Notes under the pieces: generated by a model
The model's input: only the letters and a program-made list of their open reading frames with translations
What the model was told of the DNA's origin: nothing
Databases searched by the model: none
Part shown: piece after piece, positions 40,086 to 64,000 of the stretch
How the letters are laid out: every line of letters begins with the position of its first letter
How positions within the stretch are numbered: the stretch's first letter is position 1
From: a virus
Virus record (IMG/VR): IMGVR_UViG_3300035659_000003
Location: 1-64,000 of that record
Length of the DNA: 64,000 nt
Strand: one strand, 5' to 3'
Program-made: the position numbers and the translations under genes

Positions 40086-41507
40086 TTACGTCAGGTTGAC
40101 GCCGTCGCTCAAGTCGACGATCTTCGCCTGCTTCCTGAAGTCCATGCAGCGGAGGTTGAAGGCGGTAAGGTAGATGGCCTTGATGCCGAGCATGTTGTTC
40201 TGGAGGTAGTCACGGGATTCCATATACTGGGTGGTGAAGAGAACCGGAATCTCGAGGAACCGAGTGTCCATCACGTACACGTTCGGGCCGCGCTTCTCGT
40301 CACCGGCAGCCGCCAACTGGTAGCTAGTCGGGGTATCGAAGTCGTGGAAGACTGGGATGCCCTTGTAGGTTGCCACCTGGAAGCCGGTCGGGTAACCCTT
40401 CAGCGTGCCTTCGCCGCCGAGCTTGACCTGGAACTCGCCTTCACCGATGAAGTGCTGGTTGGCCTGGAGAATGGTTCCCAGTCGGGTCAACTGCTCGATG
40501 CCGGTTGTGACTAGGTCGGGCTCGCCGCCGTTCCGACGTACCCTGTCAATGGCCTGGTCTAGCAGGACAGTGCTCAGGTGCCGGAGTGGAGCCGCTGCGG
40601 AAGCAGCCTCAAACACGTTGCCTGCGTTCCAGGCCAGGGCATCGCGGTCGGCAAGAACGAGGGAGCCGTAGCCCGCAACTTCGGCGTTGGTGAACGTCGC
40701 GCCGTTGCGGATACGGGCCGTCTGGTCGACCACGTCGTCGAGGCTGTAGGAAGCGCCGCGATCGCGTGCGTAGAGGATGCGGTCGGTTGTGGTGATCTGG
40801 TCAAACGTGGCCACCGTGTCGGAAGTGATGCCGGTGCAGATGATGTCCTGTGCCTGACCTGCCTCGCGGAACGTGTCGCCCACGTTCAGCCACGAGGTGT
40901 CGATCAAGGTGACCGCGCCTGCAGGAGCAGCGCCTAGCACGATGCGCTGGTCACTAGATGCCAGAAGCATCTGGTTGAGGCGCTTCGTGTGGTCGATCAT
41001 CGCAGTCTCCTGCGCTACCGCCAGGGCGTCCCCGATACCACCCTCCAGGGTGCCCAGGAACTGTGCCAGAGCGGAAACGCCGATGGACGTCACGATGAAT
41101 CTCGGCTGGATGTAGACGGTCTGCAGGTCAGGGCTGTCGATGTCCGGCAGGGCCGCGACTTCCGTCACGGGCCGAGTCGAACGGTTACGACCAGACCGAA
41201 TCCTGTAACCTGTGGTTGGCCCCCACGCCACCTTTCGGAGCAGGTTGAACACCCTGGTCTGGGAGTTCAAACTATCCCAGACTTTGGCTCCAAAAGTATT
41301 GACAAAAAAGTCACCCGCAATGAATGCATCGGCAGGCGGGGACGAGGTGATGTCCTTCTGGAGGAGGCCGGAGCCTGGGCCGAAGTAGCCGTAGCGGAGT
41401 TCGCGGGGACTAGAGCCACCAGGAACGCGCTGCAGCCAGTCGGCTAGAGTTCTCGGACTCCAGTTGATGGCCTTGTTTAGTTGGCTGTTGCGGTAAGAGC
41501 TTCCCAT
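40086..41507 (-). CDS. Major capsid protein, HK97-like (putative)
   Basis: 473 aa. Long N-terminal region, then an alpha/beta core with a spine-helix-like stretch (GIGDALAVAQETAMIDHTKR) and a C-terminal A-domain pattern (GYPTGFQVATYKGIPVFHDF, NVYVMDTRFLEIPVLFT). Length and position after an acidic scaffold-like gene support the call. Cleavage by a protease is not evident from sequence. Confidence 0.8.
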   Translation of the reverse strand: MGSSYRNSQLNKAINWSPRTLADWLQRVPGGSSPRELRYGYFGPGSGLLQKDITSSPPADAFIAGDFFVNTFGAKVWDSLNSQTRVFNLLRKVAWGPTTGYRIRSGRNRSTRPVTEVAALPDIDSPDLQTVYIQPRFIVTSIGVSALAQFLGTLEGGIGDALAVAQETAMIDHTKRLNQMLLASSDQRIVLGAAPAGAVTLIDTSWLNVGDTFREAGQAQDIICTGITSDTVATFDQITTTDRILYARDRGASYSLDDVVDQTARIRNGATFTNAEVAGYGSLVLADRDALAWNAGNVFEAASAAAPLRHLSTVLLDQAIDRVRRNGGEPDLVTTGIEQLTRLGTILQANQHFIGEGEFQVKLGGEGTLKGYPTGFQVATYKGIPVFHDFDTPTSYQLAAAGDEKRGPNVYVMDTRFLEIPVLFTTQYMESRDYLQNNMLGIKAIYLTAFNLRCMDFRKQAKIVDLSDGVNLT

Positions 41508-42726: not shown

Positions 42727-42800
42727 TGGTCGGGAGAGGAGGAATTGAACCTCCGCTTCCTGGCCCCAAACCAGGGGTGCTACCGTAACACTTCCCCCCG
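42727..42800 (-). tRNA. tRNA-Pro (anticodon TGG)
   Basis: Folds as a standard cloverleaf on the minus strand: CGGGGGG acceptor pairing with TCTCCCG through two G-U pairs, D arm, anticodon loop TTTGGGG between CCTGG/CCAGG, T arm GGAGG-TTCAATT-CCTCC, and an encoded ACCA end. It abuts the tRNA-Ala with no spacer. Confidence 0.92.
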
Positions 42801-42875
42801 TGGTGGACTTGTTCAGACTCGAACTGAAATCTCGCCGCTTGCAGGGCGGCTGCTCGCCCGTTGAGCTACAAGCCC
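42801..42875 (-). tRNA. tRNA-Ala (anticodon TGC) with unusual C33
   Basis: Cloverleaf: GGGCTTG/CAAGTCC acceptor, GCTC/GAGC D stem, GCCGC/GCGGC anticodon stem, loop CCTGCAA, T arm TTCAG-TTCGAGT-CTGAA, encoded ACCA. Position 33, normally T, is C. Its 3' 63 nt overlap the end of the HNH reading frame. Confidence 0.85.
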
Positions 42876-54294: not shown

Positions 54295-54774
54295 TTATCC
54301 GGCTTCTTCTACATCCAGCCCCGCGAACTCTAGAACGGCGTGCACAGCCTCCTCGCGACTGTGCACACGGCAGCTCGCGGCCTCGCGGACGAAGGCGTGC
54401 TCGTGGGGGTTCCCCTCCTTCTCCATGATGAGGACGACGAACTTGTGCAGGTGCGACGCCCAGGCCAGCTCGAACATCGAGCCGATGCTTGCCTTTGTTG
54501 CGCCCAGGAAGTCCGCGATGATCACGTCAACGGTAGACACATCGTGGTGGTCTCGCGCGAAGATGGCCGAGTCCGTTGACATAGCTGCGCGGTAGTGGCC
54601 GGACGGCAGCGGCTTGTTGCGGTATTGATGGGACAGGCTACGCTTCCCCCGCATAGGCGAGCGAACCTCGACTCCGCGCTTCTCCAGTGGCATGGCGATC
54701 TCCTCGCGGTGGGTGATCGCCTCGTCATATGTAAGGCCGGTTATGGGGCCACACAGATAACAAGATACGTGCAT
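54295..54774 (-). CDS. Nucleoside 2-deoxyribosyltransferase-like protein
   Basis: 159 aa. The N-terminal CYLCGPITGLTYDEA, then STDSAIFARDHHDVSTVDVI, IADFLGATKASIGSMFELAW and KFVVLIMEKEGNPH follow the NDT/DUF4406 fold (Rossmann-like, catalytic Glu in SMFELAW). These enzymes swap or hydrolyse nucleobases of deoxynucleosides and are found in phage nucleotide salvage and DNA modification. With the HAD nucleotidase and the dNTP diphosphohydrolase-like gene it makes a small nucleotide-metabolism set. Confidence 0.7.
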   Translation of the reverse strand: MHVSCYLCGPITGLTYDEAITHREEIAMPLEKRGVEVRSPMRGKRSLSHQYRNKPLPSGHYRAAMSTDSAIFARDHHDVSTVDVIIADFLGATKASIGSMFELAWASHLHKFVVLIMEKEGNPHEHAFVREAASCRVHSREEAVHAVLEFAGLDVEEAG

Positions 54775-58457: not shown

Positions 58458-59066
58458 CTAGTCCTCCACCGCGTCGACCATACCCCACTCCAGAGCCTCT
58501 TCGGGGAAGAGGTAGACGGGGGTGTTGGCCTCTAGAATCGTGAGCCAGAACTCCTCGGTCTTGTAGGGTGTCCCCGCCGCCGCCGTGCTGCGCTCCGCAT
58601 GGAACTTGGCTGTCTCCCTGTGCAACCGCGTCAGAAGCTTCTGCTCCGCGTTGAGGTCGCGCAGGTCGCCCACCGTCCAAGACGTGATGCCGTGCACCAT
58701 CAAGAAAGCGCTCTTGCCCATCTTGCGGACGTTGCACGTCTGGAGAACCTCGAACGCAGCGCTCATGCCGTGCCCGTAGACCTCGCCGGTGACGATGCAG
58801 CCCTTCCGCTGCGCCGCGCGGATCGCGTCCACGATAGCAAACTCGGACTCCACACTGCCGCCGTTCGAGGAGATGCGGACGGTGATCGGGTCAGGCTTCT
58901 CGCTGAGAAGGCTGATCTCCCGAACGATCCTGGCCGCCATCTCCGACCCCACGCGCTCGTCCAAGTAGACCTCGCGGCGCTTGAGGGCGGCAAACCGAAG
59001 CGAATCCTCGTAGCCGCGTGGCTCCTTCGTCTCGTCCACGTAGGTAGGCTCGTCCTGAGTCCTCAT
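58458..59066 (-). CDS. ClpP-like serine protease, second copy
   Basis: 202 aa from ATG 59066. The ClpP fold is seen as RISSNGGSVESEFAIVDAIR, nucleophile Ser102 in YGHGMSAAF and His125 in FLMVHGITSW. It lacks the coiled coil of the copy at 11073. It lies between zinc-ribbon genes in the accessory operon. Possible targets: host regulators, or a phage prohead if expressed late. Confidence 0.82.
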   Translation of the reverse strand: MRTQDEPTYVDETKEPRGYEDSLRFAALKRREVYLDERVGSEMAARIVREISLLSEKPDPITVRISSNGGSVESEFAIVDAIRAAQRKGCIVTGEVYGHGMSAAFEVLQTCNVRKMGKSAFLMVHGITSWTVGDLRDLNAEQKLLTRLHRETAKFHAERSTAAAGTPYKTEEFWLTILEANTPVYLFPEEALEWGMVDAVED

Positions 59067-59067
59067 A

Positions 59068-59262
59068 CTAGCCCTTCCTCTCCTTCTGATCGCTATCGAT
59101 CGTCCAGTTCGCGATGACATCCTCGGCGCAGCCTCCGCAGTAGCAGCCGTCGTCTATCCAGTGCACGCACCCTGAGCAGACCGCCAACCCGCAGGTCTCG
59201 CACTCGTGCTCCGGAAACTCCGCGCTGCAAAACCAGCAGGGGAACTCGCCCACGTCCATCAC
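59068..59262 (-). CDS. Small zinc-binding protein (64 aa)
   Basis: Six or more Cys in three pairs (CWFC, CETCGLAVC, CYCGGC) give a B-box/LIM-like arrangement. Overlaps the upstream gene by ATGA. Function unknown. Confidence 0.65.
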   Translation of the reverse strand: MMDVGEFPCWFCSAEFPEHECETCGLAVCSGCVHWIDDGCYCGGCAEDVIANWTIDSDQKERKG

Positions 59263-61919: not shown

Positions 61920-64000
61920 TTATTCTGGGGATTTTTTAGGGTTCTTCCGACGAACAGGCCGGAATGTGGGCCGTGCCTTCCGATAGATCAGGAAGCAGCG
62001 GCAGTTAGACCGGCAGATCGTGCTGCCGTCTCGGGGTAGGCGGGGCATCCGGTTGGCGGGCCAGGGGCTCTGCGTGGCCATCTCCAGGCACGTAGCACAG
62101 TGCTCAGCGCCAAGGGTCAGCTTCCAGTGGGCCTTCATCTGCGGCAGGTTCTCCGAGACGGTCTGATGATACAGTCCGGCGGAGCCGTCCGCGTAGAGCT
62201 TGGCGCGCCAGATGGCCTGCTTCTCGGTCTTGACCTTGCCCGCCGCCAGATCGTCGCGGAAGCCGTCGAGGTAGTGGTGCTGATGTCTCAACTCGGCCAT
62301 GAGATTATCCCGTGCCCGCTGCCGTGCGTCCGGCGTTTCCTTGAGCCGCAGCGTCGAGGCGTAGGCCGACTTGCCATAGAGGTCATCAACCGCCGCGCGC
62401 ATCTGTGCGTGCCAGGTATCCACGTCGCCTTCGCCGCGCCACAGGGCACACGTTGCGGTCTCCATTGCCTTCTTCGTGCGCCCGATCTCCATGTTGACGC
62501 GCTCAAGCGGGGAGGGCCACCGGCGCTTGCCTCGCTTGTCCAGCTTAAAGTACACGCGGGAGGGCAGATCGGAGTCCACGGCGGTGCGGGCCTTGTTGAT
62601 GCCCATCGCTGCTAGGCGCATCAGCATCTCTGCATGCGCGATTTCCGCCAGGGTAATAGGCGCATTCCGGCTGTCCTGCACGTCCTGAGAACCAGCAACA
62701 CCCTGGTTCGTGGTGACGATCCCCGTCGTGACTTCCGGTGCGTTGCCGGTGTGGGCACGAGAATCCATCGGCTCGGTTGGCGCGCCCTTCTCAACCTCCC
62801 CACCTACGAATATCTGGATGTGCCGCCCGTCCGAGGTGGTCACGAACTTGCGGGGGGCGATCCCCAGCTCCTCACCGAAGTCCTTGTTCAGGGTATCCGC
62901 CTCGTCCTCGACGGGGTTCCACTCAAGCAGCTCCGCGATAGCGTCGTAAAGCCCCGAGAAGCGCCGCTTAAACTTAGTAGGGCTTATCGTCATGTATGCC
63001 ACGCACTCGGCGAACATCTCCGCCGAACTGTCGCGCCCGTAGTGACTCGGGAGACCGCGTGCCGTCTCCTGCGCCGCGTGGAAGGCATCGAGCCAGGTGT
63101 CAGAATTAGAGAAGCGACGCTCCGTGCCATCGTCCATGACATGAGCATACTCGTGGGCGATCACCGCCCGCATGGTGTCATAGGGGCCAGAGGGAAGCTC
63201 TCCCCCCATCGCGCTCCCCCACGACTGGGCGTCGAGGGTCAGGACACTGACCTCCGCCTCATCATATCCGACGTAGGTCATGCCCGCCGCCTTGCCCACG
63301 TCGTCTGGAGACAGCTCGCCCGCTTCTGCCAGATCTTCCATAGCACGTCTCATATCGTCGCGGGAGTAGGTGTGCCAGACCGCATTAGGTACGCCGTGCG
63401 GTGCGGGCATCAGCACCAGCACCTCAGCGACGATGGGCTGATCCTGAACGTAGACATCAGCGAAGTCATGCTGCTCGGCGATCTTGAGCGCGGTGAATAG
63501 CTCGTGGATTTTCTTCGGTATTGCCTCCCCGCCATGCCGGTTGATGTCGCGGATATGGCGAATCAGGGCGCTCCGTCGGACGTGGGCACCTCCGTGCTTG
63601 CCATGCTTCTTCTGATCATGCTTGCCTGGAAGGTGCTTCTCGACCCCACTCGCAGGCTGCAACGCGAACACATCATGCGTCTGCTTTGTCCAGTCGGCAT
63701 TATGCATGTCCTCGTCCAGCCACACGGCCTCTTGTGCGGCGAGTTCGATATTGTGATGCCGCATATCCTGCTCGAAGCGCTCCTCCCACGCCGGTAGTTC
63801 CTGCCCTCCAGCACGCCGAGCAACGACATCAATTTCCCCGCCGATGACTAGCATCTCATACTCTTCGGCGCAGCCAGGCCCTGTGCGGAACGTCGAAAAG
63901 ATCTTATCACGAGGCACGCGGGCGGCAACCAGCATCTGCTCTTCCTCATGGTGTATAGCAAAGCGCGTTGCAACCGAGTACTCGCTGGCGAAGGACGACA
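61920..64000 (-). CDS. Minor head protein, 5' truncated: ADP-ribosyltransferase-like end, zincin domain and MuF-type tail
   Basis: At least 692 codons, open past the right edge. The visible N-terminal part (SSFASEYSVATRFAIHHEEE, then VPRDKIFS and AEEYEMLVIGG) has the STS-like strand and ExE motif (EYE) of R-S-E-type ADP-ribosyltransferases. A linker with KHLPGKHDQKKHG follows, then a metallopeptidase-like domain with HEYAHVMDD and a downstream Glu (SSAEMFAECVAY). The C-terminus is MuF-like: HCATCLEMA, then RSNCRCFLIYRK. Such proteins enter the head with DNA and may be injected. Order ART-zincin-MuF is unusual. Nucleotides 61917-64000 are all coding. Confidence 0.8.
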   Translation of the reverse strand, partial: SSFASEYSVATRFAIHHEEEQMLVAARVPRDKIFSTFRTGPGCAEEYEMLVIGGEIDVVARRAGGQELPAWEERFEQDMRHHNIELAAQEAVWLDEDMHNADWTKQTHDVFALQPASGVEKHLPGKHDQKKHGKHGGAHVRRSALIRHIRDINRHGGEAIPKKIHELFTALKIAEQHDFADVYVQDQPIVAEVLVLMPAPHGVPNAVWHTYSRDDMRRAMEDLAEAGELSPDDVGKAAGMTYVGYDEAEVSVLTLDAQSWGSAMGGELPSGPYDTMRAVIAHEYAHVMDDGTERRFSNSDTWLDAFHAAQETARGLPSHYGRDSSAEMFAECVAYMTISPTKFKRRFSGLYDAIAELLEWNPVEDEADTLNKDFGEELGIAPRKFVTTSDGRHIQIFVGGEVEKGAPTEPMDSRAHTGNAPEVTTGIVTTNQGVAGSQDVQDSRNAPITLAEIAHAEMLMRLAAMGINKARTAVDSDLPSRVYFKLDKRGKRRWPSPLERVNMEIGRTKKAMETATCALWRGEGDVDTWHAQMRAAVDDLYGKSAYASTLRLKETPDARQRARDNLMAELRHQHHYLDGFRDDLAAGKVKTEKQAIWRAKLYADGSAGLYHQTVSENLPQMKAHWKLTLGAEHCATCLEMATQSPWPANRMPRLPRDGSTICRSNCRCFLIYRKARPTFRPVRRKNPKKSPE

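What the first reader, a model, noticed from the sequence alone, without database searches (positions are those of the whole stretch)
61920..64000. Minor head protein combining an ART-like end, a zincin and a MuF tail
The protein carries AEEYE (ExE), HEYAH and a CxxC/CxC MuF-type end in one chain. Each part is known from phage minor head proteins or polymorphic toxins, but two enzyme domains on one MuF scaffold would deliver both an ADP-ribosylating and a proteolytic activity into the host on infection. The N-terminal part is cut by the window.
Basis: partly seen in the sequence, partly recalled or inferred. Interest (0 to 1): 0.8.

Follow-up and report, generated by a model that had tools for sequence, protein, structure and literature searches.

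The report
Viral head protein with spliced-in enzymes
A tailed virus of microbes makes a very long head protein carrying three predicted ADP-ribosylating enzymes and a likely protease, joined by short repeated peptides that recur in many other viruses and may mark the cargo a virus injects into its host.

Summary
The motifs are real. The gene is the 3' part of one intact 1654-codon ORF (61920-66884 of a 109,910-base virus record). The full protein holds, in order: an H-Y-type ART-like domain (weak), an R-S-E ART-like domain (motifs only), an R-S-E ART related to Pfam DRAT (solid: profile, residues, model), a zincin-like HEXXH domain (motifs only) and a minor-head-type tail whose homologues sit in the portal region of isolated phages. 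So the ART is supported, the zincin likely, the tail supported by position but not by the MuF Pfam profile. ART or metallopeptidase on head proteins is already a known theme ('polyvalent proteins', MuF toxins).

The part not found in the library searched is the joints: short peptides A (4 copies), B (2) and C (6) between domains of four neighbouring head-module genes. Joint B (HLPGxHDQxxHG) lies in 75 stretches of viral contigs, in ORFs rich in portal, MuF, head-protease and ART domains, but in 4 stretches of 84,980 cellular genomes (2 convincing). The same nuclease sits behind joint A here and joint B elsewhere. Copies keep the peptide while codons differ. I read this as a modular virion cargo chain; whether joints are cut is untested.

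The parts
61920..64000 (-). 3' part (residues 962-1654) of the 1654-codon polyprotein P0001; the ORF goes on outside the window to genome position 66884
63750..64000 (-). C-terminal part of ART3 (DRAT-related, R-S-E type): S963-S964 and E1008-x-E1010; R930 lies just outside the window
63600..63635 (-). joint B, second copy, HLPGKHDQKKHG (residues 1084-1095); the first copy is at genome 65150
62775..63587 (-). zincin-like domain: HEYAH at 63155-63141, candidate third ligand E1289 (in SSAEMFAEC) 41 residues after the last H
   Evidence: motifs and sub-threshold profiles only
61923..62774 (-). minor-head-type tail (phrog_24776 family) with CATC and CRC; homologues lie in the portal region of isolated phages
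40086..41507 (-). major head protein of the same virus (phrog_24667), context

Best explanation
The protein is a minor head protein that works as a cargo chain. Its C-terminal tail anchors it at the portal vertex like a MuF/gp7-type protein (inferred from the gene position of homologues). In front of the tail hang a zincin-like domain and three ART-like domains, separated by short conserved joint peptides. Joints of these kinds also thread the neighbouring head-module genes, one of which carries the prohead protease and another zincin-like motif, another a nuclease. Cargo cassettes are exchanged between viruses behind joints of different sequence (shown by comparison). The chain is packaged during head assembly, probably cut at or near the joints by the prohead protease or by its own zincin (inferred), and the pieces enter the host with the DNA, where the ARTs modify host molecules (inferred from T4 Alt and from published reasoning on polyvalent proteins).
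For: One intact 1654-codon ORF. ART3: Pfam DRAT above cut-off, relatives in phages, conserved R-G, S-S and E-x-E, model pLDDT 80.8 whose structural matches are mostly ART toxins, Tpt1/KptA and other ART-fold enzymes, best Z 7.0, and phage proteins at Foldseek E down to 5.7e-15. Tail: homologue directly after the portal and before protease and major capsid genes in Synechococcus phage Sc-Yong805-2, and near the portal in Cylindrospermopsis phage Cr-LKS4. Joints: 12 copies of three types in four genes; joint B in 75 stretches of viral contigs against 4 in 84,980 genomes; of 77 distinct B-joint ORFs 11 match Phage_Mu_F, 10 ADPrib_exo_Tox, 7 Phage_portal, and 16 match the portal family phrog_2662, 14 the head-maturation-protease family phrog_595. 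In eight proteins examined, 0 of 16 B joints fall inside a Pfam match. Cassette exchange: same nuclease-like domain, 43% identical, behind joint A here and joint B in L093; kinase-like protein free here, fused behind joints A/E in L065 and L070. Codons of identical joint-A residues agree in only 0.49 of cases in this virus, so the peptide rather than the DNA is what is kept.
Against: Nothing shows packaging, cutting, injection or enzyme activity. The zincin and two of the three ART-like domains rest on motifs. PF04233 does not match the tail. In a census of the ART3 family made without the joints, only 1 of 25 ORFs carries a joint and 3 more loci have one elsewhere, and all four are contigs already found by the joint scan: joints are not general for this ART family. 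Joint B was not found among 50,697 phage records by tblastn, though low-complexity masking may hide it. In this virus the B and C joints are closer in DNA than codon usage predicts (0.86 against 0.60; 0.72 against 0.53), so recent copying also plays a part.
Confidence: 0.6

Rival explanations
1. The joints are only flexible spacers or places where DNA recombines easily; the peptide itself does nothing and the domains stay in one chain.
For: Glycine-rich stretches often follow joint B. B and C copies in this virus are closer in DNA than codon usage predicts. Joint C was found in no viral contig outside this virus and E only in L065 and L070, as if each lineage spreads its own.
Against: Joint B keeps the same residues with both histidine codons, all four glycine codons and all four proline codons in use across 87 copies; A copies inside one genome differ at about half of their codons. 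Joints also stand near the start of ORFs (26 of 87 within the first 60 residues), where no spacer between domains is needed, though these frames run from stop to stop or to a contig end.
Confidence: 0.3
2. The zincin-like domain, not the prohead protease, cuts the chain (autoprocessing in the head or after injection), as proposed for polyvalent proteins.
For: PMC5512222 (passages read) argues for such processing; the zincin-like domain sits inside the chain right after joint B.
Against: No zincin family is among the 24 Pfam families listed for the 77 joint-B ORFs; the zincin fold here is untested.
Confidence: 0.3
3. It is a MuF-type polymorphic toxin used against rival bacteria, with an immunity gene.
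For: PMC5576092 (passages read) describes MuF proteins with ART or metallopeptidase toxin domains, mostly in temperate phages.
Against: Polymorphic toxins carry the toxin at the C-terminus (same paper); here the tail is C-terminal and four cargo domains precede it. No dedicated test for an immunity gene was made.
Confidence: 0.1
4. The enzyme-like domains are degenerate and serve as structural filler in the head.
For: Only ART3 has strong support; ART1, ART2 and the zincin are far from known families.
Against: Motif residues are present in each of them and ART3 keeps its conserved residues across relatives.
Confidence: 0.12

Closest known systems
Polyvalent proteins of phages and plasmids (Iyer et al. 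2017, PMC5512222; passages read)
   Same: Several unrelated enzyme domains, including ARTs and zincin-like peptidases, in one polypeptide of a portal-terminase phage
   Different: That paper's text has no word beginning 'linker' and the passages read describe no conserved joint peptide; here joints recur across genes and viruses
MuF-ART fusions (PMC9503650) and MuF polymorphic toxins (PMC5576092); passages read
   Same: ART or metallopeptidase fused to a minor head protein
   Different: Tail not recognised by PF04233, placed C-terminal, with four cargo domains in front
T4 Alt and T4 internal proteins with capsid-targeting peptides cut by the prohead protease (Alt from PMC5512222 passages; the peptides recalled)
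   Same: Head-packaged ART that is injected; short peptide before cargo
   Different: Joints are internal, several per protein, and unlike the AXE cut motif described for SPN3US (PMC10052503, passages read); cutting not shown here
Haloarchaeal viruses HVTV-1, HCTV-1, HCTV-5 (Druskaviridae)
   Same: Related prohead protease (31-33% identity, E about 1e-8); zeta-toxin or ART genes in the same head module; a joint-A-like stretch in HVTV-1 gp115 (weak, E 0.06)
   Different: A different repeated joint (WVSDPTEQAPNRWTN...GEHRYQE) and other cargo

Membership tests
R-S-E ADP-ribosyltransferase (ART3) | Arg, Ser-Ser and E-x-E motif residues | tested here: met
   R930, S963-S964, E1008-x-E1010; S964, E1008 and E1010 invariant in 9 of 9 rows of A3, R930 in 8 of 9 (one row, L032, aligns poorly there)
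R-S-E ADP-ribosyltransferase (ART3) | profile and fold | tested here: met
   PF07357 27.0 bits over cut-off 25; model pLDDT 80.8; listed structural matches are ART-fold proteins with few exceptions, Z up to 7.0; but no Foldseek E below 0.001 in PDB
R-S-E ADP-ribosyltransferase (ART3) | NAD-dependent transfer activity | not testable with these tools
   needs an assay
R-S-E ADP-ribosyltransferase (ART2, residues 319-560) | R / S-x-T-x-S-like / Q-x-E motifs and profile | tested here: inconclusive
   LHRG, ESWTLS, GQHE present and R and S stretches in register with six ARTs, but hhalign E 0.14, probability 0.4%
H-Y-[DE] ART / Tpt1-like (ART1, residues 100-262) | HGT, Y and acidic motif; profile | tested here: inconclusive
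   YHGTT present; phrog_5470 RNA 2'-phosphotransferase only at E 0.38
Zincin metallopeptidase | HEXXH plus downstream acidic ligand; fold | tested here: inconclusive
   HEYAH and E1289 present; PF06167/PF07737 below cut-off; model useless; hhalign E 0.096
MuF (PF04233) minor head protein | profile match | tested here: inconclusive
   no PF04233 match at E up to 1; hhalign to six MuF domains probability 9%, E 0.0036, aligning the CxxC and CRC region
MuF (PF04233) minor head protein | gene between portal and head protease/capsid genes | tested here: met
   for homologues of the tail, not for this gene: between portal and protease in one phage (E 3e-4), after the portal in another (E 0.1, weak), gene 3 of an unannotated start cluster in the third (E 4e-3). 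In the window virus the order is portal, other genes, protease-bearing ORF, this gene
Polyvalent protein | several unrelated enzyme domains in one chain of a portal-terminase phage | tested here: met
   ART3 plus zincin-like domain plus tail; portal phrog_18178; the second enzyme rests on motifs
Polyvalent protein | packaged in the virion and injected | not testable with these tools
   needs virion proteomics

The most novel reading that the evidence does not exclude
Short conserved peptides such as HLPGxHDQxxHG are a cargo code of tailed viruses: an enzyme placed behind one is taken into the head, freed there by the head protease and injected, so that any enzyme cassette can be plugged into portal, MuF or protease proteins.
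Probability: 0.35. Interest if true: 0.85.

Novelty: new variant of a known kind. Interest (0 to 1): 0.52.

Why it matters
ART-zincin-head-protein fusions were already known in kind, so the original point is modest. The repeated joint peptides offer a way to find injected virion enzymes by sequence, without any domain profile, and a testable idea for how phages load and release unrelated effectors. They could also serve as tags to send proteins into phage heads in laboratory systems, if the reading holds.

Tried and rejected
Single-protein locus searches for the tail, zincin and ART2 found no relatives. Solved-structure sequence searches with the zincin and with ART3 found nothing. A single-sequence model of zincin plus tail was useless. 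Joint C and joint E scans showed they are confined to this virus and to two relatives, which removed the idea that every joint type is widespread. phrog_24776 was not found in six records carrying joints. Literature searches for joint strings returned no paper; other searches of the library listed no title about such a peptide, and only the papers named in this report, plus PMC3950731 and PMC4284463, were opened, in passages (one search found none of its six terms). The library holds open-licence papers only, so this is not proof of novelty. Whether HVTV-1 gp115 is in the virion could not be settled from the review read in passages.

Full report
What is there. The finding covers the 3' part of a gene. 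The window lies in a virus record of 109,910 bases. Fetching the flank shows one ATG-started ORF of 1654 codons, genome 61920-66884.

Domains. (1) ART1, about residues 100-262: YHGTT, then a Tyr-containing and an acidic stretch; only a trace match to RNA 2'-phosphotransferase, E 0.38. (2) ART2, about 319-560: LHRG, ESWTLS, GQHE; R and S stretches in register with six other ARTs but E 0.14. (3) ART3, about 835-1045: Pfam DRAT E 3.1e-6, above cut-off. Its alignment with eight relatives keeps S964, E1008 and E1010 in all nine rows and R930 in eight. The model has pLDDT 80.8. In PDB no Foldseek match reached E 0.001, but the second look listed almost only ART-fold proteins (which entries have that fold is partly recalled), best Z 7.0 over 97 residues at 3.4 A, and viral predicted structures matched at E down to 5.7e-15, the best in Bacillus phage SP-15. 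(4) Zincin-like, about 1100-1370: HEYAH and an E 41 residues later; no profile over cut-off, no usable model. (5) Tail, 1371-1654: phrog_24776, E 2.8e-15, function unknown in PHROGs. tblastn hits in isolated phages (nine records, most of them weak) were read in context for three: Synechococcus phage Sc-Yong805-2 (E 3e-4), where the gene lies between the portal and prohead protease genes; Cylindrospermopsis phage Cr-LKS4 (E 0.1), two genes after the portal; Lactobacillus phage JNU_P2 (E 4e-3), gene 3 of an unannotated start cluster. That is where minor head proteins of the MuF/gp7 kind sit (recalled). PF04233 itself does not match, so I do not file it as PF04233.

Neighbourhood. Upstream in transcription lie a 1731-codon ORF with a zincin-like HETCH motif and a prohead protease (phrog_23555, E 1.1e-10), a 393-codon ORF ending in a nuclease-like domain, a 913-codon ORF without families, and further up a portal (phrog_18178, E 4.3e-48). 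'Nuclease' is my reading of a PD-(D/E)XK-like motif (D, then E-V-K; motif recalled); no Pfam nuclease family matched. The major head protein is at window 40086-41507 (phrog_24667).

Joints. Three peptides repeat between the domains of these four ORFs: A, [VI]Y...GExPPxG...GPRGGxYY, four copies; B, KHLPGKHDQKKHG, two; C, KH[DE]TEENPxHSHDP, six. A DNA scan of viral contigs for strict back-translations gave 15 stretches for A and 75 for B. The same B pattern in 84,980 bacterial and archaeal genomes gave 4 stretches, of which I judge two real: a Micromonospora ORF of MuF, joint, then 2H phosphoesterase and a Sphaerisporangium ORF of joint then ART-like domain. The sizes of the two collections differ and the viral one was not given in bases, so no exact enrichment is claimed. 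The ORFs hit were 106 in 89 loci; one was dropped and near-copies removed, leaving 88. Of the 77 with joint B, 11 match Phage_Mu_F, 10 ADPrib_exo_Tox, 7 Phage_portal, 7 DUF3626, 4 Zeta_toxin, 2 Peptidase_S78, 2 DRAT; by PHROGs, 16 match the portal family phrog_2662 and 14 the head-maturation-protease family phrog_595 (an ORF may match several). As a context control, 89 flanking ORFs without the same joint hit also match head-module families, portals and proteases included, and in addition terminase and major head proteins, which are not among the 25 best-populated families of the joint ORFs. So joints lie in the head module; the contrast with neighbours is one of degree. In eight proteins examined in detail, none of 16 B joints lies inside a Pfam match.

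Are joints kept as peptides or as DNA? Across 87 B copies every silent choice of H, P and G codons is used (the scan itself fixes the residues, so only the codon variety counts as evidence). Within one genome, identical residues share the codon in 0.49 of cases for A in this virus and 0.55 for A in L065; codon usage of the four ORFs predicts 0.53 for C and 0.60 for B, and was not computed for A. For B and C in this virus sharing is 0.86 and 0.72, above prediction, so some copies are recent. Joint C occurs in no other viral contig by the exact pattern, E (FTHEHxxxPRHP) only in L065 and L070: secondary joints look lineage-specific.

Modularity. The nuclease-like domain behind joint A in this virus is 43% identical over 188 residues to one behind joint B in L093. 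ART3 is followed by joint B both here and in L065, with a different next domain. A PI3/PI4-kinase-like protein that is a free gene here is the end domain behind joint A in L065 and joint E in L070. L065's protease is 63% identical to the one here. 227 joint-bounded segments gave 238 related pairs, of which part was cut from view.

Results against. Taking the ART3 family without regard to joints gave 25 loci: a joint in the same ORF in 1, elsewhere in the locus in 3, and these 4 contigs were already known from the joint scan. Of 16 of those ORFs, 3 match a Pfam portal and 1 MuF, so head fusion occurs without joints. Joint B was not found in 50,697 phage records, perhaps through masking.

Mechanism. 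Shown: architecture, residues, ART3 fold, joint recurrence, cassette exchange. Inferred: virion packaging, anchoring by the tail, cutting at joints, injection, activity. The model follows T4 Alt and the polyvalent-protein papers (PMC5512222, PMC9503650, PMC5576092: passages only). SPN3US shows that a head protease can cut several head proteins at a short motif (PMC10052503, passages), but that motif is not like the joints.

Verdict. The joints are the part worth following.

Noticed in passing
genome 108134-108610 (L005:13134-13610:-), outside the window: Macro-domain-like ORF (PF01661 E 0.013, below cut-off) in a virus with several ART-like domains; might reverse or read ADP-ribosylation.
   Followed up: partly
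genome 95120-95521 (L004:17120-17521:-), outside the window: YspA/cpYpsA-like SLOG protein (PF10686 E 3.4e-18), a fold linked to ADP-ribose-type ligands (function recalled).
   Followed up: partly
window 54295-54774 and 58458-59120, minus strand: Nucleoside 2-deoxyribosyltransferase-like (PF05014 E 6.7e-9) and ClpP-like (PF00574 E 1.7e-15) ORFs.
   Followed up: partly
window 42727-42875, minus strand: Two adjacent tRNA genes, Pro (tgg) and Ala (tgc).
   Followed up: no
L008, L009, L010 (HVTV-1, HCTV-1, HCTV-5): Another repeated joint, WVSDPTEQAPNRWTN..TGEHRYQE and variants, in head-module proteins of haloarchaeal viruses, before ART-like domains in HVTV-1 gp115 and HCTV-5 gp109.
   Followed up: partly
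L033:3-6194:-: 2064-codon frame with four B joints; cargo segments between them are related to each other (about 26-41% identity), as if one cassette was duplicated.
   Followed up: no
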